Assembly (NCBI RefSeq): GCF_000373365.1 | Contig: NZ_KB891245.1 | Coordinates: 1 to 32,905 of the forward strand | DNA length: 32,905 nt | Direction of reading: 5' to 3' | From: Parafrankia discariae | GTDB taxonomy: Bacteria > Actinomycetota > Actinomycetes > Frankiales > Frankiaceae | Translations under genes and position numbers: made by a program | Notes under the pieces: generated by a model | Databases searched by the model: none | Seen by the model: the letters and a program-made list of their open reading frames with translations, nothing else | What the model was told of the DNA's origin: nothing | Part shown: in pieces, positions 3,148 through 27,984 of the stretch | How positions within the stretch are numbered: the first letter of the stretch is position 1 | Layout of the letters: each line of letters begins with the position of its first letter

Positions 3148-3173
3148 GGCCTAGCCGGGCGGCCGGCTAGGCC
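3148..3173. terminator. Bidirectional terminator hairpin between convergent genes
   Basis: A perfect 11-bp stem (3148-3158 with 3163-3173) has a GCGG loop. It lies in the 38-bp gap between the convergent acyl-CoA dehydrogenase and phosphotransferase and contains the TAG stop of the latter (3167-3169). There is no T-tract on either strand, as is common in actinobacterial terminators. The preceding CTGCC triplication (3132-3146) is low-complexity filler. Confidence 0.65.
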
Positions 3174-4213
3174 ACCCGGGTGAAGGACAGGCCCTGCCGG
3201 ACGCGTGCCTCGACCTCGGTCGCGAACGTCGGTAGATCCTCGGGTGAGGTGCCCATCTTCCCGTCGAGGTAGCGCCGGTACACCCCGGCCAGGATGGCGG
3301 CGGCCCGCCAGGCGGTGAACGCCATCCAGTAGTCGAGCTCCGCGATCGAGCGACCGGACCGCTGGGCGTAGCGTGCGGCGAGCTCGTCCGTCGTGGGGAA
3401 GCCCGGCAGCGCGGAGGGCAGCCGCTCCTGGCTCGCCCGCGCGTCCGGCGTCGACCAGGTGCGCAGCAGGTAGGCGACGTCGGCGAGCGGGTCGCCCAGG
3501 GTGCAGAGCTCCCAGTCCAGCAGGGCCAGGACGTCCCCGTCGGGACCGAGGAGGGCGTTGCCGAGCCGGAAGTCGCCGTGGACGAGGCGCGCCGTGGACT
3601 CGGCGGGCCGGTGGGCGACGAGCCAGTCGTGCAACGCGGCCATGCCGCCCATGTCCCCGAGCTCGCACGCCGACCACTGCGCGGACCAGCGCCTGAGCTG
3701 CCGGTCGAGGAAGCCGTCCCGCCGGGAGAGCGTGCCGAGCCCGACCGCGTCGACGTCGACGGCGTGCAGCGCGGCGAGGGTGTCGACGAGTGCGTACCCG
3801 GCCCGGCGGCGGGCCTGCGGGGTGGGGAGCAGCTGTTCGGAGTCGGTGGCGGTGCGCAGCACGAGCCCGTCCACGTAGGCCATCACGTAGAAGGGCGCGC
3901 CGGTCACCTCCGGGTCGTCGCTCACGCCGAGCACGCGCGGCACCGGGACGCCGGAGCCGGCGAGCGCGGTCAGGATCCGCGCCTCGCGGGTGACGTCGTG
4001 GGCGGTCGCGAGCAGCGCGCCGACCGGCGGCCGGCGCAGCACGTACCGCCGGTGACCAGCGTCGGTGACGAGGTAGGTGAGGCACGAATGGCCACCGGTG
4101 ACCCGGTCGTAACGCAGCGGTGACACCGCCCCCGCCACCCGCGCGTCGAACCAGCGGTCGAGCGCCCCGGCCTCGATGCCCAGGGGCGCGGGTGCCGTCG
4201 GAAGGGCATCCAT
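3167..4213 (-). CDS. Phosphotransferase family protein (APH/choline-kinase fold, ACAD10/11 kinase-like)
   Basis: A 348-residue kinase-fold protein of the APH family. The glycine-rich region is VTGGHSCLTYLV (38-49), followed by YVLRRPPVG (57-65). The catalytic loop is LVHGDFRLGNALL (210-222), with Asp214 and Asn219. The metal-binding motif is LLDWELCTLGDP (231-242), with Asp233. This pattern fits the branch whose members phosphorylate hydroxyacyl-CoAs (the ACAD10/11 N-terminal kinase, LvaA of levulinate catabolism) better than antibiotic-resistance kinases. The ATG at 4213 has an AAGGCAGG site about 6 nt upstream. The gene converges on the acyl-CoA dehydrogenase, and a split kinase/dehydrogenase pair is the likely functional unit. 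The exact substrate is not known. Confidence 0.85.
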   Translation of the reverse strand: MDALPTAPAPLGIEAGALDRWFDARVAGAVSPLRYDRVTGGHSCLTYLVTDAGHRRYVLRRPPVGALLATAHDVTREARILTALAGSGVPVPRVLGVSDDPEVTGAPFYVMAYVDGLVLRTATDSEQLLPTPQARRRAGYALVDTLAALHAVDVDAVGLGTLSRRDGFLDRQLRRWSAQWSACELGDMGGMAALHDWLVAHRPAESTARLVHGDFRLGNALLGPDGDVLALLDWELCTLGDPLADVAYLLRTWSTPDARASQERLPSALPGFPTTDELAARYAQRSGRSIAELDYWMAFTAWRAAAILAGVYRRYLDGKMGTSPEDLPTFATEVEARVRQGLSFTRVA

Positions 4214-4552: not shown

Positions 4553-5743
4553 GTGGCTCACGCCGGAATCTCGGTGTTCGACGCGGACAACCATTTGTAC
4601 GAGACGAAGGAGGCACTGACCAAGTACCTGCCTGCCCGCTACAAGGGCGCGGTTGACTACGTCGAACTCAACGGGCGCACGAAGATCATGGTCCGGGGTC
4701 AGGTGAGCGAGTACATCCCGAACCCCACGTTCGAGGTCGTGGCCCGGCCCGGCGCGCAGGAGGACTACTACCGGAAGGGGAACCCCGACGGGCTGTCCTA
4801 TCGGGAGATCTTCGGCAAGCCGGTGAAGTGCATCGACGCCTGGCGCGAGCCCGCCGCCCGGCTGGCGAAGATGGACGAGCAGGGCCTCGACCGCACCCTG
4901 GTGTTCCCGACGCTGGCCAGCCTCATCGAGGAGCGGATGAGGGACGACCCGGACCTGATCCACGCGGTCATCCACTCCCTCAACGAATGGCTGTACGAGA
5001 CCTGGCAGTTCAACTACGAGGGGCTGGACCGGATTTTCACGACTCCGGTGATCAGTCTTCCGTTCGTCGACAAGGCGATCGAGGAGCTCGACTGGGTGCT
5101 TGAGCGGGGCGCCAAGGTCGTGCTGATCCGGCCGGCGCCGGTGCCCGGGCTCCGTGGCCCCCGTTCGTTTGGTCTGCCCGAGTTCGACCCGTTCTGGGCG
5201 CGGGTGCAGGAGGCCGGCATCCTGGTCGCGCTGCACTCCTCCGACAGCGGCTACGCCCGCTACACGAGTGAGTGGATGGGCGCGAGCATCGAGATGCTCC
5301 CCTTCCAGCCGAACACCTTCCGCATGCTGCAGGCCTGGCGTCCGGTCGAGGACGCCGTATCGGCGCTGGTGTGCCACGGTGCGCTCTCCCGCTTCCCGGA
5401 GCTGAAGATCGCCATCGTCGAGAACGGGATGAGCTGGGTCGAGCCGTTGCTCAAGTCCATGAAGAACCTGTACAAGAAGATGCCGCACGACTTCCTGGAG
5501 AACCCGGTCGACGTGGTCAAGCGGAACATCTACGTGAGCCCGTTCTGGGAGGAGGACCTCGGCGAGCTGGCGCAGCTCCTCGGTGAGGACCACGTCCTGT
5601 TCGGCTCGGACTACCCGCACCCGGAGGGCCTGGCCAACCCGGTGAGCTACATCGACGAGCTGTCGCACCTGCCCGAGGAACTCGTCCGGAAAATCATGGG
5701 TGGCAACCTCGCCCGGCTCATGGGCATCGGCGTCCCCGCCTAG
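4553..5743 (+). CDS. Amidohydrolase family protein (Amidohydrolase_2, COG2159 type)
   Basis: A 396-residue TIM-barrel, metal-dependent hydrolase or decarboxylase of the Amidohydrolase_2 family (relatives of ACMSD and gamma-resorcylate decarboxylase). The first strand has FDADNHLYE (9-17), matching the family's D-x-D-x-H opening. Further conserved points are VALHSS with His228, LVCHGALSRFPELK with His275, and LFGSDYPHPEG with Asp353, the usual metal or acid-base residue of the last barrel strand. Members decarboxylate or hydrolyse ring carboxylates, but this branch in actinobacteria is mostly uncharacterised. The GTG at 4553 has a strong AGGGGAGG site 4 nt upstream. The SnoaL-like gene follows 45 bp later on the same strand, probably in the same transcript. 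Confidence 0.88.
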   Translation: MAHAGISVFDADNHLYETKEALTKYLPARYKGAVDYVELNGRTKIMVRGQVSEYIPNPTFEVVARPGAQEDYYRKGNPDGLSYREIFGKPVKCIDAWREPAARLAKMDEQGLDRTLVFPTLASLIEERMRDDPDLIHAVIHSLNEWLYETWQFNYEGLDRIFTTPVISLPFVDKAIEELDWVLERGAKVVLIRPAPVPGLRGPRSFGLPEFDPFWARVQEAGILVALHSSDSGYARYTSEWMGASIEMLPFQPNTFRMLQAWRPVEDAVSALVCHGALSRFPELKIAIVENGMSWVEPLLKSMKNLYKKMPHDFLENPVDVVKRNIYVSPFWEEDLGELAQLLGEDHVLFGSDYPHPEGLANPVSYIDELSHLPEELVRKIMGGNLARLMGIGVPA

Positions 5744-5788
5744 GAGTTCCAGGAGTCCCAGGACCGTGGTATCAGAGAGGGAGACCAG

Positions 5789-6196
5789 ATGCTCGACGAC
5801 GGGACAGTGACGGCTTTACAACGCCACTGGGAGGATGGATTCAACGGGTACGACGTCGACGTGGTGATGGGGTCCGTCGCCCAGGACGTCGTTTTCAGCT
5901 CGCCGTTCGTGCCGCGGCTGACCGGTGATCCGCGCAGGGTGACGATCGAGGGCCACGCCCCGTTCCGGGAGTACATCGCGGATTCGATGCGCCGGGTACC
6001 GGGGATCCGCTATTCGGTCGACGCCGTCTACGTCAGCACACAGACCGTCATCTTCGTGTACTCCTGCCACTTCTCTGACGGTCAGGTGCGCACCGGCGCC
6101 GACTCCATCCGGGTCGACAGCGACGGGAAGATCGTCGAGTGGCGCTGTCACTACACGTTCGAACCGAAGGCCCTGGACAGCCTCATCGAGGACTGA
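5789..6196 (+). CDS. SnoaL-like / NTF2-fold small protein
   Basis: A 135-residue protein with the layout of the SnoaL-like NTF2 fold: an N-terminal helical stretch (LQRHWEDGFNGYDVDVVM), then FSSPFVPRLTG, GHAPFREYIADSMRRVPGIRY, and a C-terminal sheet ending IVEWRCHYTFEPKALDSL. These alpha+beta barrels act as small hydrolases, isomerases, cyclases or non-catalytic binding proteins, so the reaction cannot be assigned. The ATG at 5789 follows an AGAGAGGGAG site. It lies 45 bp downstream of the amidohydrolase and probably shares its transcript and pathway. Confidence 0.8.
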   Translation: MLDDGTVTALQRHWEDGFNGYDVDVVMGSVAQDVVFSSPFVPRLTGDPRRVTIEGHAPFREYIADSMRRVPGIRYSVDAVYVSTQTVIFVYSCHFSDGQVRTGADSIRVDSDGKIVEWRCHYTFEPKALDSLIED

Positions 6197-6384: not shown

Positions 6385-7140
6385 TCAGGTGTTGCGGCCG
6401 CCGTTGACGCCGATGATCTGACCGGTGATGTACCCGGCCTCCTCGGAGATGAGGAACGAGGCGGCGGCGGCGATGTCCTCGGGCTTGCCGGGGCGCCGCA
6501 CCGGGGTGCGCTCGGCGTGGTCGGCGATCGTGCCGCCGATGAAGCCCTTGGCCTCGACGTCGCGCAGCATCGGGGTGTCGACGAAGCCCGGCGGGATCGT
6601 GTTGACCGTGATGCCCTTGGGGCCGAACTCCAGGGCCAGCGACTTGGTGAAGCCGATGAGGCCGGCCTTCGTCGACACGTAGTGGACCATGTACTGCTGG
6701 CCCGAGTGCGCGCTCGACGACGAGATGTTGACGATCCGGCCCCAGTGGGCGTCGATCATGTCCGGGAGAACGGCCTGGGTCAGGTAGTACGGGCCGCTGA
6801 GGTTCACGGCGATCATCCGGTCCCAGAGCTCGTCCGTGATCTTCTGGAAGCCCAGGGTACCGGTGAGACCGGCGTTGTTCACGAGCACGAGGACCGGGCC
6901 GTACGCGGCGCGGATGCGGTCGATCGCCGCGTTCACCTGCGCCCGGTCGGAGACGTCGACACCGCCGAAGGCGGTGGCCTCGTACCCCAGCTCGCGAGCC
7001 TCCTTGGCCACCTGCTCGGCGCTTTCGGTGTTGATGTCGAGCACGGCGGTGGCGAAGCCGTCCTTGGCCAGGCGCAGGCTGATCGCCCGTCCGATGCCTG
7101 ATCCTCCGCCGGTTACTACGGCCGTCTTCCGTTCGGTCAC
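6385..7140 (-). CDS. Short-chain dehydrogenase/reductase (SDR)
   Basis: A 251-residue classical SDR. The nucleotide-binding motif is TGGGSGIG (10-17). Asp35 ends the second beta strand (LDIN), which favours NAD(H) over NADP(H). NNAG is at 88-91. The catalytic residues are Ser141 in the SSSS run, Tyr154 and Lys158 (YVSTK). The C terminus has the usual GQIIGVNGG. It should oxidise or reduce an alcohol/ketone pair. The GTG start at 7140 has an AAGGGGAGG site 9 nt upstream. It is the last gene of the minus-strand Rieske set but is separated from the dioxygenase by a strong hairpin, so it may be transcribed at a lower level. An oxidation step producing the ketone for the OCH-like hydrolase would fit; that is inference. 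Confidence 0.9.
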   Translation of the reverse strand: MTERKTAVVTGGGSGIGRAISLRLAKDGFATAVLDINTESAEQVAKEARELGYEATAFGGVDVSDRAQVNAAIDRIRAAYGPVLVLVNNAGLTGTLGFQKITDELWDRMIAVNLSGPYYLTQAVLPDMIDAHWGRIVNISSSSAHSGQQYMVHYVSTKAGLIGFTKSLALEFGPKGITVNTIPPGFVDTPMLRDVEAKGFIGGTIADHAERTPVRRPGKPEDIAAAASFLISEEAGYITGQIIGVNGGRNT

Positions 7141-7188
7141 GTTGCCGAACCTCCCCTTGTGGGTAGCTGCGTCGCTGATGGTCGGTCG

Positions 7189-7243
7189 ACGGAGTTCGCG
7201 CCCGTGAACCGCCGACCAGGCGGTTCACGGGCGCGAACTCCGT
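7189..7243. terminator. Perfect 25-bp inverted repeat between TauD and SDR genes
   Basis: The arms at 7189-7213 and 7219-7243 are perfectly complementary over 25 bp, with a GACCA loop. The hairpin starts 10 bp after the TauD-like stop and ends 48 bp before the SDR start. There is no T-tract. It can act as a terminator or attenuator that lowers SDR expression, or as a 3' stabiliser of the upstream mRNA. Its length and perfection are unusual for an intercistronic hairpin. Confidence 0.8.
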
Positions 7244-7253
7244 ACGAACAGAA

Positions 7254-8087
7254 TTACGCGACCGCTTCCTCACCTGCCAGCGATGTGCGGTGCATCAGCC
7301 TGGACGAGGACGGTCCGTAGGGGAGGGCCCGGTGCAGCATCCCGGTGTTGTCCCAGATCACGAGGTCGCCCTGGGTCCAGCGGTGCCGCAGGACGAACTG
7401 CGGCTGGGTCGCCCAGTCCAGCAGGCGGTCGAGCAGCGCCCGCCCCTCGTCCGCGGGCAGGCCGACGACCTCGCCCGCGGTCGAGCCCACCAGCAGCGAC
7501 TTGCGGCCGTTGCGGCGGGTCCACACGATCGGCTGTTCCCGGGTCGGATTGCGATCCCAGGCCGCCCGCTCCTCGGGTGAGGGGTCGGGGTTGGCGACGA
7601 GCTGGGAGGCGGTGAAGCTGTGCAGGGCCCGCATGCCCGCCAGCTGTGCCTTCTCCTCGTCGGACAGCGCCTCGTAGGCGGCGTAGGTGTTGGCGAACTC
7701 GGTGTCGCCCTCCGGGTCGCCGGAGATCCGGCGGGCCGTGAGCAGCGTGGCCTTGTCCGGCACCTCGCCGGTGGTCCCGTCGATGTGCCAGTGGAACGTG
7801 GCCTCGCGGTACGCCGCCAGCTTGCTCTGCGACGCGTCGCGGGTGATCCGCTGGATTTCCTTGATTTCGTGGCCACCCATGGGGAGCGGCAGGACGTTGC
7901 CGAGCAGCCGGGCGAAGGCGACCAGGCCCTCGTCGTCGATGTCAGCCTCGCTGAAGACGACGACCCCGGTCTCCTCCAGAGCGGCCAGGGCGTCCTCGGC
8001 GACGCCCTTGTCGACGAGCTGCGTGCCCTTCAGCCCGCTGAACTCTGTGCCGGTGTTCGGAGTGATCTTCCTGATGGTGGTACCCAT
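7254..8087 (-). CDS. TauD/TfdA-family Fe(II)/2-oxoglutarate dioxygenase
   Basis: A 277-residue member of the TauD/TfdA family. It should couple oxidation of a substrate to decarboxylation of 2-oxoglutarate using mononuclear iron. The facial triad is visible as FHWHIDGTTG (His101, Asp103) and NTGMLHRALPY (His252). The 2-oxoglutarate-binding arginine is in SSRLMHRTSL (Arg263 or Arg267). Length is normal for the family. The ATG at 8087 is chosen because it lies 14 bp after the preceding stop, has AAGG upstream and starts the conserved sequence; earlier in-frame codons overlap the 114-residue gene. Placement directly after a Rieske oxygenase suggests a second oxygenation or a C-O bond cleavage in the same pathway. 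The substrate is unknown. Confidence 0.88.
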   Translation of the reverse strand: MGTTIRKITPNTGTEFSGLKGTQLVDKGVAEDALAALEETGVVVFSEADIDDEGLVAFARLLGNVLPLPMGGHEIKEIQRITRDASQSKLAAYREATFHWHIDGTTGEVPDKATLLTARRISGDPEGDTEFANTYAAYEALSDEEKAQLAGMRALHSFTASQLVANPDPSPEERAAWDRNPTREQPIVWTRRNGRKSLLVGSTAGEVVGLPADEGRALLDRLLDWATQPQFVLRHRWTQGDLVIWDNTGMLHRALPYGPSSSRLMHRTSLAGEEAVA

Positions 8088-8101
8088 GGCAGGTCGCCTT
8101 C

Positions 8102-8446
8102 TCAGAGGGCCGGTTCGACGGCGGTGTCGAAGAAAGCCGCGCCGGAGTCCGGGATCCGGGGCTGCTTGAAGATGTTCACCGGGTACGAAACCATGATCAT
8201 CGAGTAGAGCAGGCGCAGCAGCCGGGTGTCCTCGCCGGACAGGGCGTTCACGTCGCGGGTGTCGAGGTAGGCGATGGCCTCCTCGGCGAGCGGCGCGATC
8301 GCGTCGTAGAAGTCCTGCAGCTCGTCGATGGTCTTGGTCAGCCGCTTCTCGTAGCGCTCGACCCGAGTCGCCAGGTCCCAGTCGGCGACCCACGGCTCGA
8401 GGGCGCGGAACCGCTCGGGCAGGGATGTGTCCACGGTGGTGGTCAT
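8102..8446 (-). CDS. Hypothetical 114-residue protein of the Rieske operon
   Basis: I do not recognise a named family. The product is 114 residues, acidic in the middle and predicted mostly helical, with no signal peptide or membrane segment. Notable parts are LPERFRALEPWVADWDL (9-25), DELQDFYDAIAPLAEEAIAY (41-60) and YPVNIFKQPRIPDSG (88-102). The charged, heptad-like middle part could form a helical hairpin for protein contact. It lies 14 bp after the Rieske stop and 14 bp before the TauD-like start, so the three are surely cotranscribed. The ATG at 8446 has AGAGGA about 10 nt upstream. A role as a small partner or chaperone of the Rieske enzyme is inferred from position only. It does not look like a classical beta subunit, which is longer and NTF2-like. 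Confidence 0.82.
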   Translation of the reverse strand: MTTTVDTSLPERFRALEPWVADWDLATRVERYEKRLTKTIDELQDFYDAIAPLAEEAIAYLDTRDVNALSGEDTRLLRLLYSMIMVSYPVNIFKQPRIPDSGAAFFDTAVEPAL

Positions 8447-8460
8447 GTCGACGGGTTCCT

Positions 8461-9756
8461 CTACTTCTCGCTGCCGGCCTGGTGCGCCGCGACGGCGTCC
8501 CGGACGACCTTGTGGAACTGACGGATCATCAGCTCCATGTCGGACAGGTGGAACGTCTGCAGCGCCCGGTTGTTGAGCTGCGACCAGGTCGCCTCCACCG
8601 TGTTCGTGTCCTGCATCGCGAACTCGATGGTGCTGTCGACGACGAGCTCCTGGGCCAGCCGCTCGGAGGCGGTCTTCGGCTCGGGGAAGTAGATGTCGAC
8701 CTCGTAGGCGTGGGTGCCGACGGTCTCCGGGATGTACTGGTACGTGATGTAGTACCCGCGGCCCCAGAGCTGGACCGACAGGTTCGGGAACAGCCAGTAC
8801 TGGTCGTTGCTCCAGGACTGGACGTTGCCGGGGTTGCGGTTCGGGGTGAGGTGGCCGAGGTCCTCGCGGACGTCGTCCGGGCCGAACAGGCCGGCGCGGA
8901 ACAGCCGGTAGGCCCAGTTCATGTCCCGCTTGGCCGGGCCGACCGAGCCCTCCTTCTTCTTCAGGAGCGGCGGGCCGGGCACCGAGGTCAGCATGTGCGG
9001 GGTGAACAGGTCGTAGTGGTAGGAGTCCATCGGCGGGACGAGCTTCTCTGCCTCGGCGACGTTGGTGTTGAGGAACCGCCCGTGGACGTACGCCGGGTGG
9101 TACCACTCCAGCAGCGCGTCGATGCCGATCTTCCAGTTGCCCTTGACCTTGGTCCGGAACGACCAGTGGTTGGTGAACTTCTCGAACGGCCAGCTCTCCA
9201 GCTCGGTGGCCAGCTTCTCACCGAGGAACTGGCGCAGCGGCGGGGCGTCCTGGCTGAAGTTCACGAAGATGAACCCGGCGAAGACCTCGCAGCGCAGCTG
9301 CGGCATGGCGAGCTCGTCGTCGGGCAGCGACTCGAAGAACTCGTTGCGCTTGGTGACGTAGGTGCACTTGCCGTCGAGGCCGTAGCGCCAGCCGTGGTAC
9401 TTGCAGGCGAACTGCCGGGCGCTGCCCTGGGTCTCGTTGGTCGGGTGCTCCTGCCAGACGACCTTGTTCCCGCGGTGCGCGCAGATGTTGTGCAGCGCGT
9501 ACACCTCACCGTCGGTGTGCCGGGTGATCACGATCGATCCCAGGCCGACGAACTCGCGGGTGAAGAACGTCCCGTTGCGGGGCAGCTGCTCCATCCGGCC
9601 GACCTTCAGCCAGGTCCGCTTGAAAATCGCCTCACGCTCGGCCTGGAAGAACTCCTCGGAGATCGAGTCCTCGTAGTCGACCGGACCGGTGTCGAGGTTC
9701 GGGTACCCCGGTGTGTACTTGCCTCTGCCGGTCGCAAGCTTTTCCTGGATGGCCAT
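8461..9756 (-). CDS. Rieske [2Fe-2S] aromatic-ring-hydroxylating oxygenase, alpha subunit
   Basis: A 431-residue oxygenase alpha subunit. The N-terminal Rieske domain has NICAHRGN (Cys92, His94) and FACKYHGWRYG (Cys118, His121). The spacer between His94 and Cys118 is 23 residues, longer than the common 15-17. The catalytic domain has NWKIGIDALLEWYHPAYVHG, where His220 and His225 are iron ligands. Glu217 sits where most family members have the bridging aspartate that passes electrons between subunits; carnitine oxygenase CntA also uses Glu here. No reductase or ferredoxin gene is in the window, so electrons must come from elsewhere. The ATG at 9756 is chosen over a TTG at 9765 because AGAGGGG lies 9 nt upstream of it and abuts the TTG. 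It is the third gene of the operon. Confidence 0.93.
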   Translation of the reverse strand: MAIQEKLATGRGKYTPGYPNLDTGPVDYEDSISEEFFQAEREAIFKRTWLKVGRMEQLPRNGTFFTREFVGLGSIVITRHTDGEVYALHNICAHRGNKVVWQEHPTNETQGSARQFACKYHGWRYGLDGKCTYVTKRNEFFESLPDDELAMPQLRCEVFAGFIFVNFSQDAPPLRQFLGEKLATELESWPFEKFTNHWSFRTKVKGNWKIGIDALLEWYHPAYVHGRFLNTNVAEAEKLVPPMDSYHYDLFTPHMLTSVPGPPLLKKKEGSVGPAKRDMNWAYRLFRAGLFGPDDVREDLGHLTPNRNPGNVQSWSNDQYWLFPNLSVQLWGRGYYITYQYIPETVGTHAYEVDIYFPEPKTASERLAQELVVDSTIEFAMQDTNTVEATWSQLNNRALQTFHLSDMELMIRQFHKVVRDAVAAHQAGSEK

Positions 9757-9793
9757 CGGCTTCAACCCCTCTCGCAGGATGATTAACTCGGTG

Positions 9794-10984
9794 TCAGATC
9801 ACTCCATCGGCGCGCAGGCGCGCGATCTCCTCCGGAGTGCGTCTCAGTAGTTCGGTGAGTACGTCGTCGGTGTGGGCGCCGAGCTCCGGTCCCAACCAGC
9901 GAATCTCACCCGGGGTGTCGGACAGCGCCGGGATCACTCCGGGCACTGCCAACGGGCCGATCCGGGACTCCTCGACGGTGATCGTCTCGCGGTGCTTGTA
10001 CTGAGGATCGTCGAAGATGTCGGCGATGGAGTAGAGCTGGCCGGCCGGCACCTGGGCCTCACGGCACCGGGCGAGCGCCTCGTCGCACGGCAGGGAGCCC
10101 ACCCACCCGCCGACCAGTTCGTTGACCAGGTCGCGGGCGGCCAGCCGCTTCGCCTTCGGCCCCAGCTCGTCCTCGTTCGCCAGTTCGGGACGTTCCATGG
10201 CCCGGGCCAGCCGGGCGAACATGTCGTCGTTGGAGCAGGCGATCGCGATCCAGCGGTCGTCCTTGGTCCGGTAGTGACTGTGCGGGAGCACGTTGACGGT
10301 GTCGGCGCCCATCCGCTCGCGGACGTACCCGAACTGCTGGTAGGCGGGGGCGATCTCGTCGAGCGCCCGGAAGATCGTCTCGTACAGGGCCAGATCGACG
10401 ACCTGGCCCTTCCCGGTGCTCTCCCGGGCGCGCAGGGCCATCAGGACGCCGATGACCCCGTACAGCCCCGTCATGTAGTCGGCCAGCGAGGTGGAGCCCG
10501 GGGTGACCGGCGTGCCGCCCGGCTCGCCGGCCAGGTAGGCCAGCCCCGAGAACGCGTGGGCGATCCGCGCGAAGCCGGGCAGGCTCCGGTTGGGCCCCGA
10601 CTGCCCGTAGGCGGAGACCCGCAGCAGGATCGCGCGCGGGTTCAGCTCCTCGATCACCTCGGGGCCGAGGCCCCAGCGTTCGAGGACACCGGGCCGGAAG
10701 TTCTCGATCACGATGTCGGCGGTGGCGATGAGCTCCCGGAGGATCTCGAGGCCACGGGGATCGCCGAGGTTGAGCGTCACCGATCGTTTGTTGCGGCTTT
10801 CGCTGAGCCAGACCAGGGTGTCGCCGCAGTCCGTGTCGGTGCCGAAGCGGCGAAGGTTGTCGCCGGTGCCGGGCCGCTCGACCTTGATGATGTCGGCCCC
10901 GAACTCGCCGAGCACCGTGGCGCAGAACGGCCCCGCGAGGTAGGTGCCCAGGTCGAGGACCCGGACGCCCTGGAGTGCGTGCAT
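9794..10984 (-). CDS. Class III CoA-transferase (CaiB/BaiF family)
   Basis: A 396-residue family III CoA-transferase, which moves CoA from a donor thioester to a carboxylate through an aspartyl intermediate. Family features are the opening GVRVLDLGTYLAGPFCATVLG, FGADIIKVERPGTGD, SRNKRSVTLNL and ENFRPGVLERWG. The catalytic Asp is Asp169 in TSLADYMTGLYG, the same number as in formyl-CoA transferase. The ATG at 10984 has GGAGG 9 nt upstream. It is 44 bp after the OCH-like gene and 37 bp before the Rieske gene. In this operon it probably activates a carboxylic acid, perhaps the product of ring hydrolysis, for beta-oxidation. Confidence 0.93.
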   Translation of the reverse strand: MHALQGVRVLDLGTYLAGPFCATVLGEFGADIIKVERPGTGDNLRRFGTDTDCGDTLVWLSESRNKRSVTLNLGDPRGLEILRELIATADIVIENFRPGVLERWGLGPEVIEELNPRAILLRVSAYGQSGPNRSLPGFARIAHAFSGLAYLAGEPGGTPVTPGSTSLADYMTGLYGVIGVLMALRARESTGKGQVVDLALYETIFRALDEIAPAYQQFGYVRERMGADTVNVLPHSHYRTKDDRWIAIACSNDDMFARLARAMERPELANEDELGPKAKRLAARDLVNELVGGWVGSLPCDEALARCREAQVPAGQLYSIADIFDDPQYKHRETITVEESRIGPLAVPGVIPALSDTPGEIRWLGPELGAHTDDVLTELLRRTPEEIARLRADGVI

Positions 10985-11028
10985 GCTGTCAGCCTCCGTG
11001 GTCGGCGATTCGACGTCCAGGTCGATTC

Positions 11029-11892
11029 TTAGTCCGACCAGGGCTGTGCGTCCCACGGTCTGTCCAACGGCTCCATCCCGCCACCGAACGGGAAGAACTC
11101 CCGCTGGGCGTAGGTCTCCCGACCGAGGCCGTGACCGAGCTCGTTCAGGAAGGCGCGCTTGAGGTCCTGGGTGAACAGCTCGCGGGTGTAGCGCAGCACG
11201 AGTGGGGGCTTGCGCACCAGCTCCCGCGCGAGCTCCCAGGCCCGGTCGAGGAGCTGCTCCTTCGGGTGCACCTCGGCGACGGCGCCCCAGGCGAGCGCCT
11301 CCTGGGCGCCGAGCTTCTTCCCGGTGAGCAGCAGGTAACGGGCGCGGTTGTGGCCGACGAGGAACGGCCAGATGACGTGCTGCCCGTCGCCGGGGACCTG
11401 GCCGCGGGGGAAGTGCGACACGTCCTGGAAGTAGGCGTCCTCGGAGGCCAGCACGATGTCGCCCATCAGCGGGACCTCGGAGTGGATGTTGCACGGGCCG
11501 TTGACCGCGCTGATCATGGGGACGCCGACGTCGAGGACGTTGTTGATCAGGTTGCGGTTGTACCAGGCCTTCTCGTCGAGCTTGCGCAGCCCGCGGTCGC
11601 CCGGCATCAGCCGGTACTCCGGCTTCTCCGGGGGCTCGCCGCTCGGGAGGTTGCCCCAGTTGGCGTTGTAGTTCGCGCCGGTGCCGGTGTGGATCAGGAT
11701 CTTGATCTCGCGGTCGCCCGCGACGTCGGCGAACGCGTCGGCCATGTCGTCGTGGGACTTCCAGTCCCACACCAGGCTGCCGCCGTTGGTGTGGCACTGC
11801 ATGAGCAGGATGCCGTCCTCGTCTAACTCGAACCGGTAGTTGGCGTACCGGGCCTCGTACTCCTTGAACCTCGTCCGCTTGACCATCCCCAT
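11029..11892 (-). CDS. Crotonase-fold protein resembling 6-oxocamphor hydrolase (C-C bond hydrolase)
   Basis: A 287-residue crotonase-superfamily protein whose closest remembered relative is Rhodococcus 6-oxocamphor hydrolase (OCH), a beta-diketone hydrolase that opens bicyclic diketones by a retro-Claisen reaction without CoA. Shared blocks are GGSLVW (37-42), VNGPCNIHSEVPLMGDIVLA and HFPRGQVPGDGQHVIWP. The OCH residues Trp40, His122, His145 and Asp154 correspond to Trp42, His137, His160 and Asp169. An extra stretch of about 20 residues lies at 75-108 (NYNANWGNLP onward). The ATG at 11892 and the ATG at 11886 are both possible; AAGGG fits the second better. It is the first gene of the minus-strand operon. 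I expect hydrolysis of a cyclic 1,3-diketone; a plain enoyl-CoA hydratase is less likely. Confidence 0.85.
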   Translation of the reverse strand: MGMVKRTRFKEYEARYANYRFELDEDGILLMQCHTNGGSLVWDWKSHDDMADAFADVAGDREIKILIHTGTGANYNANWGNLPSGEPPEKPEYRLMPGDRGLRKLDEKAWYNRNLINNVLDVGVPMISAVNGPCNIHSEVPLMGDIVLASEDAYFQDVSHFPRGQVPGDGQHVIWPFLVGHNRARYLLLTGKKLGAQEALAWGAVAEVHPKEQLLDRAWELARELVRKPPLVLRYTRELFTQDLKRAFLNELGHGLGRETYAQREFFPFGGGMEPLDRPWDAQPWSD

Positions 11893-11944: not shown

Positions 11945-11973
11945 TTACCACATATCCAAGGTCGTCCTATAGT
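11945..11973 (+). promoter_or_regulatory. Candidate promoter of the LLM oxidoreductase in a 106-bp divergent gap
   Basis: TTACCA (11945-11950) and TATAGT (11968-11973) are separated by 17 bp. Transcription would start near 11980, giving a leader of about 20 nt that lacks a clear ribosome binding site. The same 106-bp gap must also hold the promoter of the leftward operon, so one regulator could control both. Confidence 0.4.
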
Positions 11974-11998
11974 CGGACGCGCATGTTATTCTCCGTCG

Positions 11999-13043: not shown

Positions 13044-13811
13044 TCAGCGGGCCACGTACCCGCCGTCCACCGGGATGGCGGTTCCGGTGACGAACGACGA
13101 CTCGTCGCTGGCGAGGAACAGCGCGGCCGCCGCCAGCTCCTGCGGGCGGCCCCACCGCCGCATCGGCTGGGGCAGGTTGGCGACGGGGGGCTCGGAGTCG
13201 TCGGCCGCGTTCGCCAGGCCCGTCCACGTCATGCCCGGGCAGATGGCGTTGACCCGGACCCCGGACTCGGCGAAGTCCAGCGCGGCGGACTTGGTCATCT
13301 GCACGACCCCGCCCTTGGCCGCCGAATATATGGCCTGGTCCTTCCAGCCGACGAGACCGGCGGCCGAGGCGGTGTTGATGACCGACCCGCCGCCGCCGCG
13401 CAGCATGGCGGCGATTCCGAACTTCATTCCGAGGAAGACGCCTTTGAGGTTGACCGCGATCAGTTTGTCGAAGGTCTCCTCGTCGAACTCGGTGATCGGT
13501 TTGCGTGGGCCACCGCCACCGGCATTGTTGAACAGCACGTCGAGCCGCCCGAACTCCTGCACGGCGGTGTCGATCATATTCTGCACGTCGGCCGAGGAGG
13601 TGACGTCGACGTGTACCGGAACGGAGCCGTCACCGATAGTCGCCGCGGTTTCCTTCTCCCGGCCACTGAAGTCGGCGCAGACGACGCGTGCGCCCTCGCG
13701 CGCGAACAGCAGGGCGGCTGACCGGCCTATGCCGGAGCCCGCGCCCGTGATAACCGCGACCTTCCCCTCGAGGCGTCGCGCCGGAGTGGAATCCCTTAAT
13801 TGCTCGCCCAT
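13044..13811 (-). CDS. Short-chain dehydrogenase/reductase (SDR)
   Basis: A 255-residue classical SDR. TGAGSGIG (22-29) binds the nucleotide, and Asp47 at the end of the second strand (CADF) suggests NAD(H). FNNAG is at 94-98. Ser149, Tyr162 and Lys166 (IYSAAKGG) form the active site. The C terminus has VTGTAIPVDGGYVA. It most resembles 3-oxoacyl reductase or cyclic-alcohol dehydrogenase types; the substrate is open. The start is uncertain: the ATG at 13811 begins normal family sequence, but an ATG at 13832 is also in frame and neither has a strong ribosome binding site. It converges on the LLM gene and lies downstream of the CitE-like gene, beyond that gene's terminator, so it is probably transcribed alone. 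Confidence 0.9.
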   Translation of the reverse strand: MGEQLRDSTPARRLEGKVAVITGAGSGIGRSAALLFAREGARVVCADFSGREKETAATIGDGSVPVHVDVTSSADVQNMIDTAVQEFGRLDVLFNNAGGGGPRKPITEFDEETFDKLIAVNLKGVFLGMKFGIAAMLRGGGGSVINTASAAGLVGWKDQAIYSAAKGGVVQMTKSAALDFAESGVRVNAICPGMTWTGLANAADDSEPPVANLPQPMRRWGRPQELAAAALFLASDESSFVTGTAIPVDGGYVAR

Positions 13812-13896
13812 GGCCGTCAGTCTACACATCATGTCATGGAGGTAAAGATGTCCCGCGAATAGTTCGAGTGACGTGGGCCTGGCATGCCGGTGATGT

Positions 13897-13991: not shown

Positions 13992-14927
13992 TCATCGGCC
14001 GGCGAGGGCCGCCTTGTGCAGGACGTTGGCGGCCAGGCGCATGTGGGCGGCGTCGACGAGCCGCCCGTCGCGGCCGATCGCGCCGACCCCGTCCGCCTCG
14101 GACTCGCGGTAGATCTTCACCGCCTCGTGCGCCTCGGCCACCTCCTGCTCGGTCGGCGCGAACACCTCGTTGGCGATGGGCACCTGCGCCGGGTGGATGG
14201 CCCACTTCCCGTCGAAGCCGAGCAGGCTCGCGTGGGTGGCCGACCGGCGGTACCCGTCGACGTCCTGGTAGGCGGGGTACGGGGCGTCGATCGCGTCGAT
14301 GCCCGCCCCGCGCGCCGCCGAGAGCACCTGGACCCGCGCGAAGTGCCAGAAGTCGCCGGGGTACTCCCCGACGGGGTCGAAGTTGCCGTCCACCCGGGCG
14401 CGCAGCGACGCCGAGAGGTCACCGGCGCCGAAGATGATCGCCTCCAGCCGGCTGCTGGACCGGGCGATCTCGGCGGCGTTGGACAGACCCTCGGCCTCCT
14501 CGATCAGCACCTCCAGCCCGATCCGCCGGGTCAGCCCGAGCTTCGTCTCGAGCTGGGTCAGCAGGACGTCGACCCACCAGACGTCGCGCGCCGAGCGGGC
14601 CTTGGGAACGATGAGCACGTCGAGCGACGCGCCCGCCCCGGTGACGATCTCGATGATGTCGTCGTGGCACCAGGGCGTGTCCAGACCGTTCACCCGGACG
14701 GCGCGGACAGTGTGCCCCCAGTCCAGGTTGGTGAGCGCGCCGACGGCGATACCGCGGGCGGCCTCCTTGGCCGACGGCGCGCAGGCGTCCTCCAGGTCGA
14801 GAAAGACGAGGTCCGCTCCCGAACCGGCGGCCTTCTGGCACATCTTCTCGCTGCTGGCCGGGGTGGCCAGTTCCGAGCGACGGGCGCGCGGCCTGGTGAC
14901 GTTGGATTCTTCCGCTCTACCGGACAC
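13992..14927 (-). CDS. HpcH/HpaI aldolase / citrate lyase beta-like protein (CitE family)
   Basis: A 311-residue TIM-barrel lyase of the CitE/malyl-CoA lyase family, which cleaves or condenses 3-hydroxyacyl-CoA-type substrates with a divalent metal. LVFLDLEDACAP (40-51) and VRVNGLD with Arg78 are the family's CoA and substrate sites. The metal ligands are Glu143 in LIEEAEG and Asp170 in FGAGDLSASL. LLGFDGKWAIHPAQV near the C terminus is the conserved lid region. The GTG at 14927 is chosen because GGGAGG lies 5 nt upstream. No citrate lyase alpha or gamma subunit is nearby, so a stand-alone malyl-CoA or beta-hydroxyacyl-CoA lyase is more likely than citrate lyase. It could make acetyl-CoA or glyoxylate from a pathway end product. 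Confidence 0.9.
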   Translation of the reverse strand: MSGRAEESNVTRPRARRSELATPASSEKMCQKAAGSGADLVFLDLEDACAPSAKEAARGIAVGALTNLDWGHTVRAVRVNGLDTPWCHDDIIEIVTGAGASLDVLIVPKARSARDVWWVDVLLTQLETKLGLTRRIGLEVLIEEAEGLSNAAEIARSSSRLEAIIFGAGDLSASLRARVDGNFDPVGEYPGDFWHFARVQVLSAARGAGIDAIDAPYPAYQDVDGYRRSATHASLLGFDGKWAIHPAQVPIANEVFAPTEQEVAEAHEAVKIYRESEADGVGAIGRDGRLVDAAHMRLAANVLHKAALAGR

Positions 14928-15569
14928 AACTGCCTCCCATGTCTGCTGAATTCGCTGTCGGGTCGTGCGCCGCACACGGCGTTCCTGGACGCGCGGTGCC
15001 TGGGCACCGTGTGCCCGGGAATCGGCGCCGATCGTTCCGGGTGTCTTTTTCGATTATCCTGGCGAAGGGCTTGGTGACGCGGGGTGAATCGGGGTGAAAG
15101 AGCCGGGCGGCAGGCGTTCGCGGTGCCGGCTCCGGCCCGGGGAATTCGCGGCCGGTCGGCGTTCTCCCGGCGCTACGCTGGGTTGGATCTTCGTGACGGA
15201 TCCGGGTCGGACCGGGGCTGGTGATCAGTCATGCCCGGGTCGCCGCGGAGGCATGACCGAAATACGCTTCGAGTGGATCACATTCCCGTCCTCGAGGCGG
15301 GACGGATCCGGTTGTTCGATATAGACGCCAACGTTAGTGTTGTCGTATGACGACCGCAACTGTCGACGGCCGCGGGGCCGGGGCGCCAGCCCGGGCTCGC
15401 GGGTCGCGCACGGTCGTCCCGCCGCCGGCCGGGAATCCCGGACCGCCGGCCCGGGGTTCGTCACCATGCCTGGATCTGTCAGACCACGACTGATCGTCAC
15501 GTCAGCTGATCGCTACGTCATCGCGTCACGTCATCACGACGTCATCGCGCGCCGTGTCCGGAGGGACTC
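14928..15569. other. 642-bp divergent intergenic region
   Basis: This gap separates the leftward CitE-like gene from the rightward aldehyde dehydrogenase. A palindrome-like CGGTGCCTGGGCACCG lies at 14994-15009, about 70 bp upstream of the CitE-like start. A TATAGA box and operator-like repeat lie at 15320-15342. A 48-codon reading frame (ATG at 15347, stop at 15491-15493) has no ribosome binding site, is Ala/Pro/Gly/Arg-rich and is not called. Repeated CGTCA-type words lie at 15496-15545. Nothing else is recognisable. Confidence 0.4.
15320..15342 (+). promoter_or_regulatory. Candidate -10 box with operator-like inverted repeat
   Basis: TATAGA at 15320-15325 is followed by CAACGTTAGTGTTG (15329-15342). 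Its outer CAAC/GTTG arms are inverted and its centre resembles operators of TetR-type repressors, which often contain TAACGTTA-like cores. It would lie close to or over a transcription start for the aldehyde dehydrogenase, about 230 bp before the ATG. No good -35 box is seen and no TetR gene is in the window. Confidence 0.3.
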
Positions 15570-17021
15570 ATGCAGGAGCAAGATCGTCTTTTTGTCGGCG
15601 GCGAATGGGTCGCGCCCAGCGGCACGCGCACGATCGAGGTGGTCTCGCCGCACAGCGAGCAGGTCATCGCCCGCATCGCCGCGCCCGGCACCGAGGATGT
15701 GGACCGGGCGGTGGCCGCCGCCCGCGCCGCGTTCGACGAGGGGCCGTGGCCACGTCTCGCCCCGGCCGAGCGGGTCGCGGTCATCCGGCAGCTGGGCGCG
15801 CTGCTCAAGCCTCGACGCAAGGAGCTCTCCGAGCTGATCAGCGCCGAGATGGGGGCGCCGATCTCGTTCGCGAAGCTGTCGCACGTGACGCTGCCGCTGC
15901 TGATGATGGGCGCGTTCGCCGACATCGCGGAGAACCTGCCATGGGAAGAGCCGCGCAAGGGCTTCTACGGGCAGGACGTTCTGCTGCGCAAGGAGCCGAT
16001 CGGGGTCGTCGCTGCCATCGTCCCGTGGAACATGCCGCTGTTCCTGACCATCGGGAAGCTGGTGCCGGCCCTGCTCGCCGGGTGCTCGGTCGTCCTCAAG
16101 CCGTCGCCGGAGACGCCCCTCGACGCCTACGTGCTGGCCGAGAGCCTCGCCGAGGCCGGGCTGCCGCCGGGCGTCGTCAGTGTGCTGCCCGGTGACCGGG
16201 AGATCGGCGAGTACCTCGTGGCGCACCCGGGGGTGGACAAGGTGTCCTTCACCGGCTCCACCGCGGCCGGCCGCCTGGTGGCAGCGTCCTGCGGGTCGAA
16301 CCTCAAGCGGGTCAGCCTCGAGCTCGGCGGCAAGTCCGCCGCGGTGGTGCTCGACGACGCCGACCCCGCCGCCGTGGCCGAGGGTGTGGAGATCGCCGGC
16401 CTGATGAACAGCGGGCAGGCCTGCGTCGCCCAGACCAGGATCCTCGTCCCCCGCGCGCGCTACGGCGAGTTCGTCGACGCCCTCGCCGCGATGGTCGAGT
16501 CGCTGCCCGTCGGTGACCCGTCCGACCCGGCGACGAAGGTCGGCCCGCTGGTCGCCCGCCGCCAGCAGGAGCGGGTGCGCGGGTACATCGAGGAGGGCCA
16601 GAAGGAGGGCGCCCGCCTGGTCGTCGGCGGCAGCGACCTGCCGGCCGGGATCGACCAGGGCTGGTACGTCCGCCCGACCGTCTTCGCCGACGTCGAGAGC
16701 GGCATGCGCATCGCGCAGGAGGAGATCTTCGGCCCGGTGCTGACCGTGCTGCCCTACACCGACGACGCCGACGCGGTCCGCATCGCGGACGACACCGAGT
16801 ACGGCCTGTCCGGCTCGGTGTGGACGTCGGACGTCGAGCGGGGCCTCGCGGTCGCCCGCCGGGTCCGCAGCGGGACCTTCGGTGTCAACCAGGCGTACAG
16901 CATGGACCCGAACGCGCCGTTCGGTGGGGTCAAGGCCAGCGGGATCGGTCGCGAGCTGGGCCGCGAGGGCATCGAGGGCTACCTCGACGTCAAGTCGATC
17001 TCGGTGGCGCCGGCCTCGTAG
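15570..17021 (+). CDS. NAD(P)-dependent aldehyde dehydrogenase
   Basis: A 483-residue aldehyde dehydrogenase of normal length. Asn154 (VPWNMPL), Lys177 (VLKPSPETP), the FTGST turn (227-231), Glu251 (LELGGKS) and the catalytic Cys285 (NSGQACVAQTR) are all present. EEIFGPVL and the C-terminal PFGGVKASGIGRELG complete the family signature. It oxidises an aldehyde to a carboxylate, or a semialdehyde to the acid. The ATG at 15570 has GGAGG 5 nt upstream. It is the only plus-strand gene between the CitE-like gene and the two-component system, and converges on the histidine kinase with a 20-bp gap. It may finish an aldehyde product of the catabolic region. Confidence 0.95.
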   Translation: MQEQDRLFVGGEWVAPSGTRTIEVVSPHSEQVIARIAAPGTEDVDRAVAAARAAFDEGPWPRLAPAERVAVIRQLGALLKPRRKELSELISAEMGAPISFAKLSHVTLPLLMMGAFADIAENLPWEEPRKGFYGQDVLLRKEPIGVVAAIVPWNMPLFLTIGKLVPALLAGCSVVLKPSPETPLDAYVLAESLAEAGLPPGVVSVLPGDREIGEYLVAHPGVDKVSFTGSTAAGRLVAASCGSNLKRVSLELGGKSAAVVLDDADPAAVAEGVEIAGLMNSGQACVAQTRILVPRARYGEFVDALAAMVESLPVGDPSDPATKVGPLVARRQQERVRGYIEEGQKEGARLVVGGSDLPAGIDQGWYVRPTVFADVESGMRIAQEEIFGPVLTVLPYTDDADAVRIADDTEYGLSGSVWTSDVERGLAVARRVRSGTFGVNQAYSMDPNAPFGGVKASGIGRELGREGIEGYLDVKSISVAPAS

Positions 17022-25364: not shown

Positions 25365-25520
25365 GTGGCGGTCACCACGCCACCGGGTCGGCAGTCAGCA
25401 GAACTGCCGGCCAACGTGCCCGCACGATCGTCAGTACCCACGCCGCCCCCCGCGAGCGCTGCCCCCCGACCAGCCGATCGGACAGCAAGATCCATCGACT
25501 GCCTTCTCACCATAACCGAC

Positions 25521-25557
25521 CCTGACGTGTCGTCAGGTGCCGACGTCCGCGCGGACG
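25521..25557 (-). terminator. Two small stem-loops after the LOV-phosphatase gene
   Basis: CGTCCGCGCGGACG (25544-25557) is a perfect palindrome. CCTGACG/CGTCAGG (25521-25527 with 25531-25537) is a 7-bp hairpin with a 3-nt loop. They lie 20-60 bp after the stop of the minus-strand LOV-phosphatase, in a 214-bp gap before the kinase-like gene. They may terminate or attenuate transcription. Confidence 0.4.
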
Positions 25558-25578
25558 CGGGCCCGCCTCAGCCCGGCC

Positions 25579-27573: not shown

Positions 27574-27749
27574 CCCAGAGGCCCTGTCCAGGTCCGGCCG
27601 GACAGAACATCCGAACCTGAACAAGTGATCTAAGTCACATGGGGCGACTTGATGTACGGGTTACGGCGGGCAAGATCGGGGTTCGCGGGTGTGGCGGGGG
27701 GCAAAGCGGAAAGGACCGCCGTGCCCGACATTCTCTCCCGGAGGTAGTC

Positions 27750-27959
27750 ATGGGACTGCGCTACACCCGCCGGCCGCACTACGGGCCCTTCTACGTGAAC
27801 GTCAGCGAGAACGGGGTGTCCTCGGTGACTCTGAAGCTCGGCCGAATCTCCTGGCGGGTGTGGTCGAAGAACCGCCGTGGCGGCCTGTCCAGCGTCGACC
27901 TTCCCGGTCCGTTCTCCTACCGCCGGGACGGCCGCCGCCGGGCCCCCGCCAACCGCTGA
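27750..27959 (+). CDS. Small basic protein, DUF4236-like
   Basis: A 69-residue protein starting MGLRYTRRPHYGPFYVNVS and continuing GVSSVTLKLGRISWRV, then VDLPGPFSYRRDGRRR. The pattern of a short basic N terminus, 'GP(F/L).(V/I)N.S..G' and alternating beta strands resembles DUF4236-type small proteins of actinobacteria. The function is unknown. The ATG at 27750 has GGAGG 5 nt upstream, which makes it a real gene. It is the only plus-strand gene within the signalling block, sits between two phosphatase genes, and converges on the second with a 25-bp gap. Confidence 0.8.
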   Translation: MGLRYTRRPHYGPFYVNVSENGVSSVTLKLGRISWRVWSKNRRGGLSSVDLPGPFSYRRDGRRRAPANR

Positions 27960-27984
27960 CCGGCCGGCGGACGTCGCGGGTTCG

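What the first reader, a model, noticed from the sequence alone, without database searches (positions are those of the whole stretch)
6385..11892. Undescribed-looking catabolic operon: OCH-like hydrolase, CoA-transferase, Rieske oxygenase, small unknown, TauD dioxygenase, SDR
Six same-strand genes have gaps of 44, 37, 14, 14 and 113 bp. Two different iron oxygenases (Rieske and 2-oxoglutarate type), a diketone-type hydrolase, a CoA-transferase and an NAD-type SDR together are not a standard aromatic pathway. An F420-type oxidoreductase is divergent from it across 106 bp. The order fits hydroxylation, oxidation to a diketone, ring hydrolysis, then CoA activation.
Basis: partly seen in the sequence, partly recalled or inferred. 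Interest (0 to 1): 0.7.

Follow-up and report, generated by a model that had tools for sequence, protein, structure and literature searches.

The report
Rieske oxygenase operon with small partner
A conserved set of soil-bacterium genes that probably breaks open a ring-shaped molecule, in which an iron oxygenase is usually followed by a small helical protein that I could not find described and that may be a new kind of oxygenase subunit.

Summary
The six genes are real, with the stated gaps. They travel together: 27 orthologous clusters were mapped in Frankiaceae, Nocardia, Rhodococcus, Actinomadura, Amycolatopsis and Prauserella, and in 301 genomes of another family close OCH and Rieske homologues occur in the same 4 genomes, at one locus each. 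The unit is larger than proposed: the F420 enzyme, a second SDR and a malyl-CoA-lyase-like gene belong to it. The "OCH" keeps the catalytic residues of 6-oxocamphor hydrolase but sits in only 2 of 12 Frankiaceae clusters; Parafrankia colletiae keeps a deletion remnant. So ring hydrolysis is an ancestral step that was lost, not a fixed core. The best lead is the "small unknown". It has no Pfam, NCBIfam or PDB match, is predicted to be a four-helix bundle, and lies just downstream of 42 of 47 members of one Rieske subfamily. That subfamily has an invariant glutamate at the electron-bridging position (178 of 178), as in carnitine monooxygenase CntA. I read the pair as a two-component oxygenase. 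The substrate is unknown; a cyclic ketone or terpenoid-like acid is most likely.

The parts
11029..11892 (-). OCH-like beta-diketone hydrolase (crotonase fold), 287 aa
   Evidence: PDB best hits 6-oxocamphor hydrolase 1e-65 and Alr4455 beta-diketone hydrolase 7e-59; W42, H137, H160, D169, E259 match OCH W40, H122, H145, D154, E244 (numbers recalled) and are kept in 14 of 14 sequences aligned; in 16 of 27 clusters
9794..10984 (-). CaiB/BaiF class III CoA-transferase, 396 aa
   Evidence: PF02515 3e-116; orthologue in 22 of 27 clusters
8461..9756 (-). Rieske oxygenase catalytic subunit with bridging glutamate E217, 431 aa
   Evidence: PF00355 and PF00848; E217 in 178 of 178 aligned sequences; model closest to CntA, Z 32.1, rmsd 3.2 over 331 residues
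8102..8446 (-). Small partner of the Rieske enzyme, 114 aa, predicted four-helix bundle, family not found described
   Evidence: No Pfam or NCBIfam family at E <= 0.001, none better than 0.02 for 27 members; no PDB sequence match (best E 0.3) or fold match at E <= 0.001; AF2 pLDDT 85.8; downstream of 42 of 47 family Rieske genes
7254..8087 (-). TauD/TfdA-type 2-oxoglutarate dioxygenase, 277 aa
   Evidence: PF02668 2e-55; best PDB TfdA-type 5bke 4e-32; HxD and distal His present; 21 of 27 clusters
7189..7243 (-). 25-pair hairpin between TauD and SDR (terminator- or processing-like, no U tract)
   Evidence: Fold z -8.9; 11 of 25 pairs with changes on both sides, 93.3% of cells paired in 6 genomes; gap is 0-12 bp by alignment ends in 5 Nocardia, Rhodococcus and Prauserella loci
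6385..7140 (-). Short-chain dehydrogenase, 251 aa
   Evidence: PF00106 7e-61; YxxxK and GxxxGxG; 24 of 27 clusters
11963..11979 (.). Palindrome between OCH and F420 genes, operator-like (function not tested)
   Evidence: 15-base core in 6 of 6 genomes of the window's genus, 0 of 6 in the sister genus; the only exact copy in the genome
11999..12976 (+). LLM-class F420-dependent oxidoreductase (TIGR03621), 325 aa
   Evidence: TIGR03621 1e-80, above cut-off; 24 of 27 clusters, co-directional in Nocardia/Rhodococcus
13044..13832 (-). Second short-chain dehydrogenase (SDR2)
   Evidence: Pfam; 25 of 27 clusters
13992..14975 (-). HpcH/HpaI-family C-C lyase, malyl-CoA-lyase-like
   Evidence: PF03328; best PDB malyl-CoA/beta-methylmalyl-CoA lyase 5ugr 1e-72; 20 of 27 clusters
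15570..17021 (+). Aldehyde dehydrogenase, conserved next to the cluster in Frankiaceae
   Evidence: PF00171 2e-160; 11 of 12 Frankiaceae clusters at >=75% identity, 0 of 15 others

Best explanation
This is a conserved actinobacterial catabolic operon for a cyclic, non-aromatic (alicyclic or terpenoid-like) compound. Shown by sequence: which enzymes are present, that they are co-inherited, that known catalytic residues are intact, and that the small gene tracks the Rieske gene. Inferred: the Rieske protein and the small protein form one two-component oxygenase fed by an FNR/2Fe-2S reductase encoded elsewhere; Rieske and TauD enzymes each install an oxygen; the SDRs oxidise alcohols to ketones; where OCH is present it opens a cyclic 1,3-diketone by retro-Claisen cleavage; the CaiB enzyme makes the acid a CoA ester; the malyl-CoA-lyase-like enzyme splits a 3-hydroxyacyl-CoA; aldehyde dehydrogenase takes up the aldehyde. 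OCH was part of the ancestral set and was deleted in Frankiaceae lineages, which must use another ring-opening step or a substrate that enters later.
For: Synteny in 27 clusters. OCH and Rieske in the same 4 of 301 genomes of another family, 51 to about 1290 bp apart. OCH catalytic residues 14 of 14. OCH 5' and 3' remnant in P. colletiae. Lyase, CoA-transferase and dehydrogenase assignments. Small/Rieske linkage: 68 of 68, 116 of 118, 42 of 47 in reverse, small pairing follows Rieske pairing in 628 of 630 locus comparisons. FNR/Fer2-type reductases beside paralogous or related pairs.
Against: No substrate, transcript or activity is known. OCH is missing from 10 of 12 Frankiaceae clusters, and CoAT, TauD, SDR or HpcH from 3 to 7 of 27, so the set is modular. 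A distant Rieske-small pair sits in a skatole/indole type of cluster, an aromatic context. Five of 47 family Rieske genes lack a small neighbour, and on three plasmids the small gene lies upstream instead. Six of ten OCH-less genomes hold 31-40% OCH-like matches elsewhere, so a stand-in is possible. Whether the small protein binds the Rieske enzyme was not tested.
Confidence: 0.5

Rival explanations
1. The operon degrades an aromatic N-heterocycle or plant aromatic (indole, skatole, auxin-like); the Rieske-small pair hydroxylates a ring as other ring-hydroxylating oxygenases do.
For: An Acinetobacter plasmid holds Rieske-small-NTF2-styrene/indole monooxygenase-flavin reductase-SDR-ferredoxin-reductase. 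In A. piscicola p38 gene1684 (Rieske), 1687 (monooxygenase) and 1690 (ferredoxin) rise on skatole, and 1688 is the flavin reductase, the same spacing, so the small gene is probably 1685 (passages and tables of PMC11434297).
Against: No styrene/indole monooxygenase, ring-cleavage dioxygenase or ferredoxin among the 25 window proteins scanned. That Rieske is distant (31% identity). OCH and malyl-CoA-lyase-like enzymes are not aromatic-ring enzymes (general knowledge).
Confidence: 0.2
2. A tailoring cluster for a secondary metabolite: Rieske, TauD, F420 and SDR enzymes decorate a natural product.
For: All four enzyme types occur in natural-product clusters (general knowledge); weak TauD hit to pentalenolactone synthases, far below cut-off.
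Against: No assembly-line, terpene cyclase or transporter domain in the 25 window proteins scanned; CoA-transferase, C-C lyase, acyl-CoA dehydrogenase, enoyl-CoA hydratase and aldehyde dehydrogenase neighbours point to catabolism; the set recurs in seven genera.
Confidence: 0.1
3. The small gene is not a subunit but a dedicated folding or metal-insertion helper, or a regulator, of the Rieske enzyme.
For: Small, predicted all-helical; absent beside 5 of 47 family Rieske genes, as a helper could be.
Against: Each small gene follows its own Rieske gene when two units share a cluster (628 of 630 comparisons among 36 loci, not independent); a general helper would not need one copy per oxygenase.
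Confidence: 0.3
4. Chance neighbours of six ordinary catabolic genes.
For: Such gene types are abundant in the 7.9-Mb genome, which has many similar stretches (43 matches).
Against: Synteny over 27 clusters in seven genera and same-locus co-occurrence in 4 of 4 genomes.
Confidence: 0.01

Closest known systems
6-oxocamphor hydrolase (OCH) of Rhodococcus and Alr4455 beta-diketone hydrolase
   Same: Sequence family (E 1e-65 and 7e-59) and all five catalytic positions
   Different: Here embedded with Rieske and TauD oxygenases instead of a P450-started camphor route (route recalled); substrate unknown
Carnitine monooxygenase CntA (Rieske, alpha-3, bridging glutamate)
   Same: Closest fold of the Rieske model (Z 32.1); Glu in place of the usual bridging Asp (CntA E205 in passages of PMC7948474)
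   Different: 19-24% identity; CntA's substrate-binding Tyr203, two residues before the Glu, is Phe/Leu/Ile/Val here, so a quaternary amine is unlikely; I know of no small four-helix partner of CntA (recalled, not searched)
Alpha-beta ring-hydroxylating oxygenases (naphthalene, terephthalate, salicylate 5-hydroxylase)
   Same: Oxygenase gene followed by a small-subunit gene
   Different: Their beta subunits are of the cystatin/NTF2 type (recalled); this one is predicted all-helical and matches no Pfam family
TfdA/AAD-type 2-oxoglutarate dioxygenases
   Same: Best PDB matches of the TauD-family gene
   Different: Only 4e-32; below every NCBIfam cut-off listed
skatole (ska) and indole (iif) clusters of Rhodococcus and Acinetobacter
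   Same: A distant Rieske-small pair lies in an Acinetobacter cluster of this type
   Different: No flavoprotein indole/skatole monooxygenase or ferredoxin among the 25 window proteins scanned

Membership tests
OCH-type beta-diketone hydrolases | Closest sequence match to OCH/Alr4455, far above other crotonases | tested here: met
   1e-65 and 7e-59 against 9.5e-18 for the next chain
OCH-type beta-diketone hydrolases | Catalytic Trp40, His122, His145, Asp154, Glu244 (numbering recalled) | tested here: met
   All five conserved in 14 of 14 sequences aligned
OCH-type beta-diketone hydrolases | Hydrolysis of a cyclic 1,3-diketone without CoA | not testable with these tools
   Needs enzyme assay
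Rhodococcus camphor pathway | P450 camphor hydroxylase in the cluster (recalled) | tested here: not met
   No P450 among 25 window proteins scanned; a P450 lies beside the Prauserella cluster; most other clusters were not scanned for it
Rieske oxygenases (ring-hydroxylating alpha subunits) | CxH...CxxH Rieske site, 2-His catalytic iron site | tested here: met
   C92, H94, C118, H121, H220, H225 in 178 of 178
CntA-like quaternary-ammonium Rieske monooxygenases | Bridging glutamate | tested here: met
   E217 in 178 of 178
CntA-like quaternary-ammonium Rieske monooxygenases | Tyr two residues before the Glu (CntA Tyr203) | tested here: not met
   Position 215 is F 151, L 13, I 9, V 5 of 178; register inferred from the Glu
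Alpha-beta dioxygenases with cystatin-type beta subunit | PF00866-type beta subunit gene next to alpha | tested here: not met
   Small gene matches no Pfam family and is predicted all-helical; no PF00866 among the 25 window proteins scanned
Single co-transcribed operon of six genes | Same strand, short gaps | tested here: met
   Gaps 44, 37, 14, 14, 113
Single co-transcribed operon of six genes | No terminator-like element inside | tested here: inconclusive
   Conserved hairpin in the 113-bp gap before SDR; the consensus scan, which asks for a T run, does not list it; its effect is unknown

The most novel reading that the evidence does not exclude
A third architecture of Rieske oxygenases: a glutamate-bridged catalytic subunit with its own four-helix small subunit, unrelated to the cystatin-type beta subunits, present in Actinomycetota and Pseudomonadota as probably hundreds of gene pairs, up to seven per genome, and used in modular pathways with a 2-oxoglutarate dioxygenase and, in this case, an OCH-type ring hydrolase.
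Probability: 0.45. Interest if true: 0.65.

Novelty: new variant of a known kind. Interest (0 to 1): 0.5.

Why it matters
If the small protein is a true subunit, many Rieske genes annotated as lone alpha subunits would be expressed and studied without part of their enzyme, and a new oxygenase type becomes directly testable. The operon also offers a place for OCH-type ring hydrolysis outside camphor, with natural deletion mutants (most Frankiaceae that carry the cluster) for comparison.

Tried and rejected
Chance neighbourhood: rejected by synteny. OCH as an invariant core step: rejected (2 of 12 Frankiaceae clusters; remnant). OCH moved elsewhere in the OCH-less genomes: at E <= 1e-20 six of those ten genomes hold only 31-40% matches (best G001, 40%) and four hold none, so a distant stand-in is not excluded. 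Quaternary-amine demethylation: unlikely because the CntA Tyr is absent. Abscisic acid idea (a Novosphingobium P6W plasmid hit): the one paper search for it found nothing. Operator regulon: the palindrome has no other exact copy, and with 3 mismatches allowed it gives 12 matches against 31 for its control, so no regulon is claimed. Fold of the small protein: Foldseek gave no match at E <= 0.001 and VIA's best Z was 5.2, within what helical bundles give by chance; this does not show a new fold.

Literature: the 10 paper searches listed no paper that I recognised as describing the small family or this operon. Listings only, except four papers: passages of PMC7948474, PMC12538310 (indole genes, no mention of Rieske), PMC11434297, and passages plus section 9 of PMC13101512. 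Most subscription papers are not held, so the family may be in print elsewhere. PHROGs, PADLOC and viral scans were not used.

Mirror-tree values (0.90 Rieske-small, 0.92 Rieske-TauD, 0.81 small-TauD) do not separate binding from mere linkage, so they are not used as evidence of binding.
Full report
Observation. Pfam gives crotonase, CoA-transferase III, Rieske alpha, nothing, TauD and SDR. The crotonase is specifically OCH-like, and the five OCH catalytic positions are conserved in 14 of 14 sequences aligned (position numbers recalled).

Do the genes travel together? A small-gene match of 71% identity or more is in 12 of the 35 genomes of this family searched. In the window and the 11 others CoAT, Rieske, small, TauD and SDR are in the same order with a divergent F420 gene; in one (L036) the TauD match is only a piece. 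The genome-contig scan found 485 loci for the small family and kept the best 80; 15 loci outside Frankiaceae, at 62-72% in the small gene, carry the orthologous cluster. I tabulated these with the 12 (n = 27, all picked by the small gene): Rieske 27, small 27, SDR2 25, F420 24, SDR 24, CoAT 22, TauD 21, HpcH 20, OCH 16. Some contigs end inside the cluster, so the lower counts are lower bounds; in N. alni the TauD and SDR2 counted are on the other strand. In Nocardia and Rhodococcus the order HpcH-SDR2-F420-OCH-CoAT-Rieske-small-TauD-SDR is co-directional (L086, L090, L095). A test not picked by the small gene: in 301 genomes of another family, OCH at E <= 1e-60 is in 4 and Rieske at E <= 1e-130 in 4, the same 4, at one locus each, 51 bp apart in one and about 1.3 kb in three (only the best few first-look candidates per genome were scored).

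OCH is an ancestral but disposable member. It is in 14 of 15 clusters outside Frankiaceae (two of these are cut by contig ends) but in 2 of 12 inside. In P. colletiae the CoAT-F420 spacer aligns with the window over the first 177 positions (139 identical, reaching OCH codon 24 in a global alignment; 236 columns at 74.6% by blastn) and again over the last 59 positions, with the middle missing; the score is 165 against at most -24 for 100 shuffles. EUN1f, G004 and EI5c keep the upstream region and at most a few codons. So the gene was deleted in at least one lineage. Distant matches elsewhere in OCH-less genomes are told under Tried and rejected.

The small gene. Alignment A1 (27 members) has no Pfam match better than E 0.02 and no PDB sequence match better than 0.3. 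AlphaFold2 with 64 sequences gives four helices at mean pLDDT 85.8; no PDB fold match at E <= 0.001. Linkage, forward: 68 of 68 small genes in loci fetched around small genes lie directly downstream of a Rieske gene; 116 of 118 in the genome-contig loci (some Frankiaceae places are in both counts), the misses being one at a contig end (L112) and one in L150 with no Rieske match. Reverse: in 14 genomes, 13 of them chosen because they carry small genes, the Rieske search gave 47 full-length family members and 33 short, distant ones. Of the 47, 42 have a small gene within 100 bp downstream and 5 do not; of the 33, 1 does, and it is itself a diverged pair (places are not independent). When loci have two units, the small genes pair up the way the Rieske genes do in 628 of 630 comparisons among 36 loci. 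On plasmids 14 records hold a small relative. I opened 4: all 4 sit directly behind a Rieske gene and hit the family profile. By the coordinates, 4 more have it downstream, 3 have it upstream (H7, H10, H13) and 3 cannot be told. So the link holds in distant relatives but the order is not fixed there.

The Rieske subfamily. All 178 aligned members have Glu where naphthalene dioxygenase has the bridging Asp (alignment). In CntA that glutamate (E205) is needed for intersubunit electron transfer, and the paper cites E205D and E205Q as inactive (passages of PMC7948474). The model (mean pLDDT 71.9) is closest to CntA (Z 32.1 over 331 residues), 1.6 above terephthalate dioxygenase. CntA's Tyr203 has no counterpart, so I do not propose a quaternary amine. 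FNR/Fer2 reductases lie inside a paralogous cluster of the same genome (L021), beside the Prauserella cluster and beside the R. qingshengii pair; none is among the 25 window proteins scanned, so a reductase encoded elsewhere is inferred.

Functional anchor, distant. An Acinetobacter plasmid has Rieske-small-NTF2-styrene/indole monooxygenase-flavin reductase-SDR-ferredoxin-reductase. In A. piscicola p38 gene1684 (Rieske) is listed as up on indole and on skatole, 1687 and 1690 on skatole, and 1688 is the flavin reductase (passages and tables of PMC11434297). The numbering matches the plasmid order, so gene1685 is probably the small gene; I did not see its sequence. The Rhodococcus ska cluster is assigned a three-component oxygenase (section 9 of PMC13101512); whether it contains the small family was not tested.

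Transcription. Between TauD and SDR is a 25-pair hairpin without a U tract. In 6 genomes of the window's genus 11 of 25 pairs change on both sides and 93.3% of cells pair (structure taken from the window, only 6 rows). Long predicted stems also fill that gap in 5 of 6 loci of the sister genus (no shuffle control), while in the sixth (L034) the gap is 26 bp; in 5 Nocardia, Rhodococcus and Prauserella loci the gap is 0-12 bp by alignment ends. It may end or tune the transcript before SDR. A palindrome between F420 and OCH is conserved in 6 of 6 genomes of the window's genus and absent in that form elsewhere.

Mechanism and verdict. I read the set as two oxygenations, ketone formation, retro-Claisen ring opening where OCH is present, CoA activation, C-C cleavage by a malyl-CoA-lyase-like enzyme and aldehyde oxidation. 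Only the enzyme identities and linkage are shown. The operon as such is a new variant of known catabolic logic; the Rieske-small pair is the part most worth an experiment.

Noticed in passing
window 1812-3128 and 3167-4213: An acyl-CoA dehydrogenase beside an APH-type kinase gene on opposite strands; this pairing recalls hydroxy-acyl-CoA phosphorylation systems (recalled, not tested). The APH protein is below every NCBIfam cut-off listed.
   Followed up: no
window 4553-6196: Amidohydrolase-2 and SnoaL-like genes lie next to the cluster on the + strand; an 83% paralogue of the amidohydrolase lies near a Rieske gene that lacks the small partner (L023).
   Followed up: partly
L021 (own contig C172) and L107 (Mycobacterium paraense): A recurring paralogous module: aldehyde dehydrogenase divergent from Rieske-small with TauD, SDR and a second Rieske-small unit, seen in several Frankiaceae and mycobacterial loci.
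   Followed up: partly
L217-L220 and L023: Five family Rieske genes without the small neighbour; in L220 an SDR and in L218 a TauD-like gene follows directly, in L217 the next frame is on the other strand. They may be a subclade that needs no partner.
   Followed up: partly
window 23064-29217: Two SpoIIE-type phosphatase genes and a histidine-kinase-like ATPase gene, a possible stress-signalling group.
   Followed up: no
L239 (Sphingobium plasmid pRSMS1): The Rieske-small pair is flanked on both sides by copies of the same IS21-type element, so it may move as a unit.
   Followed up: no
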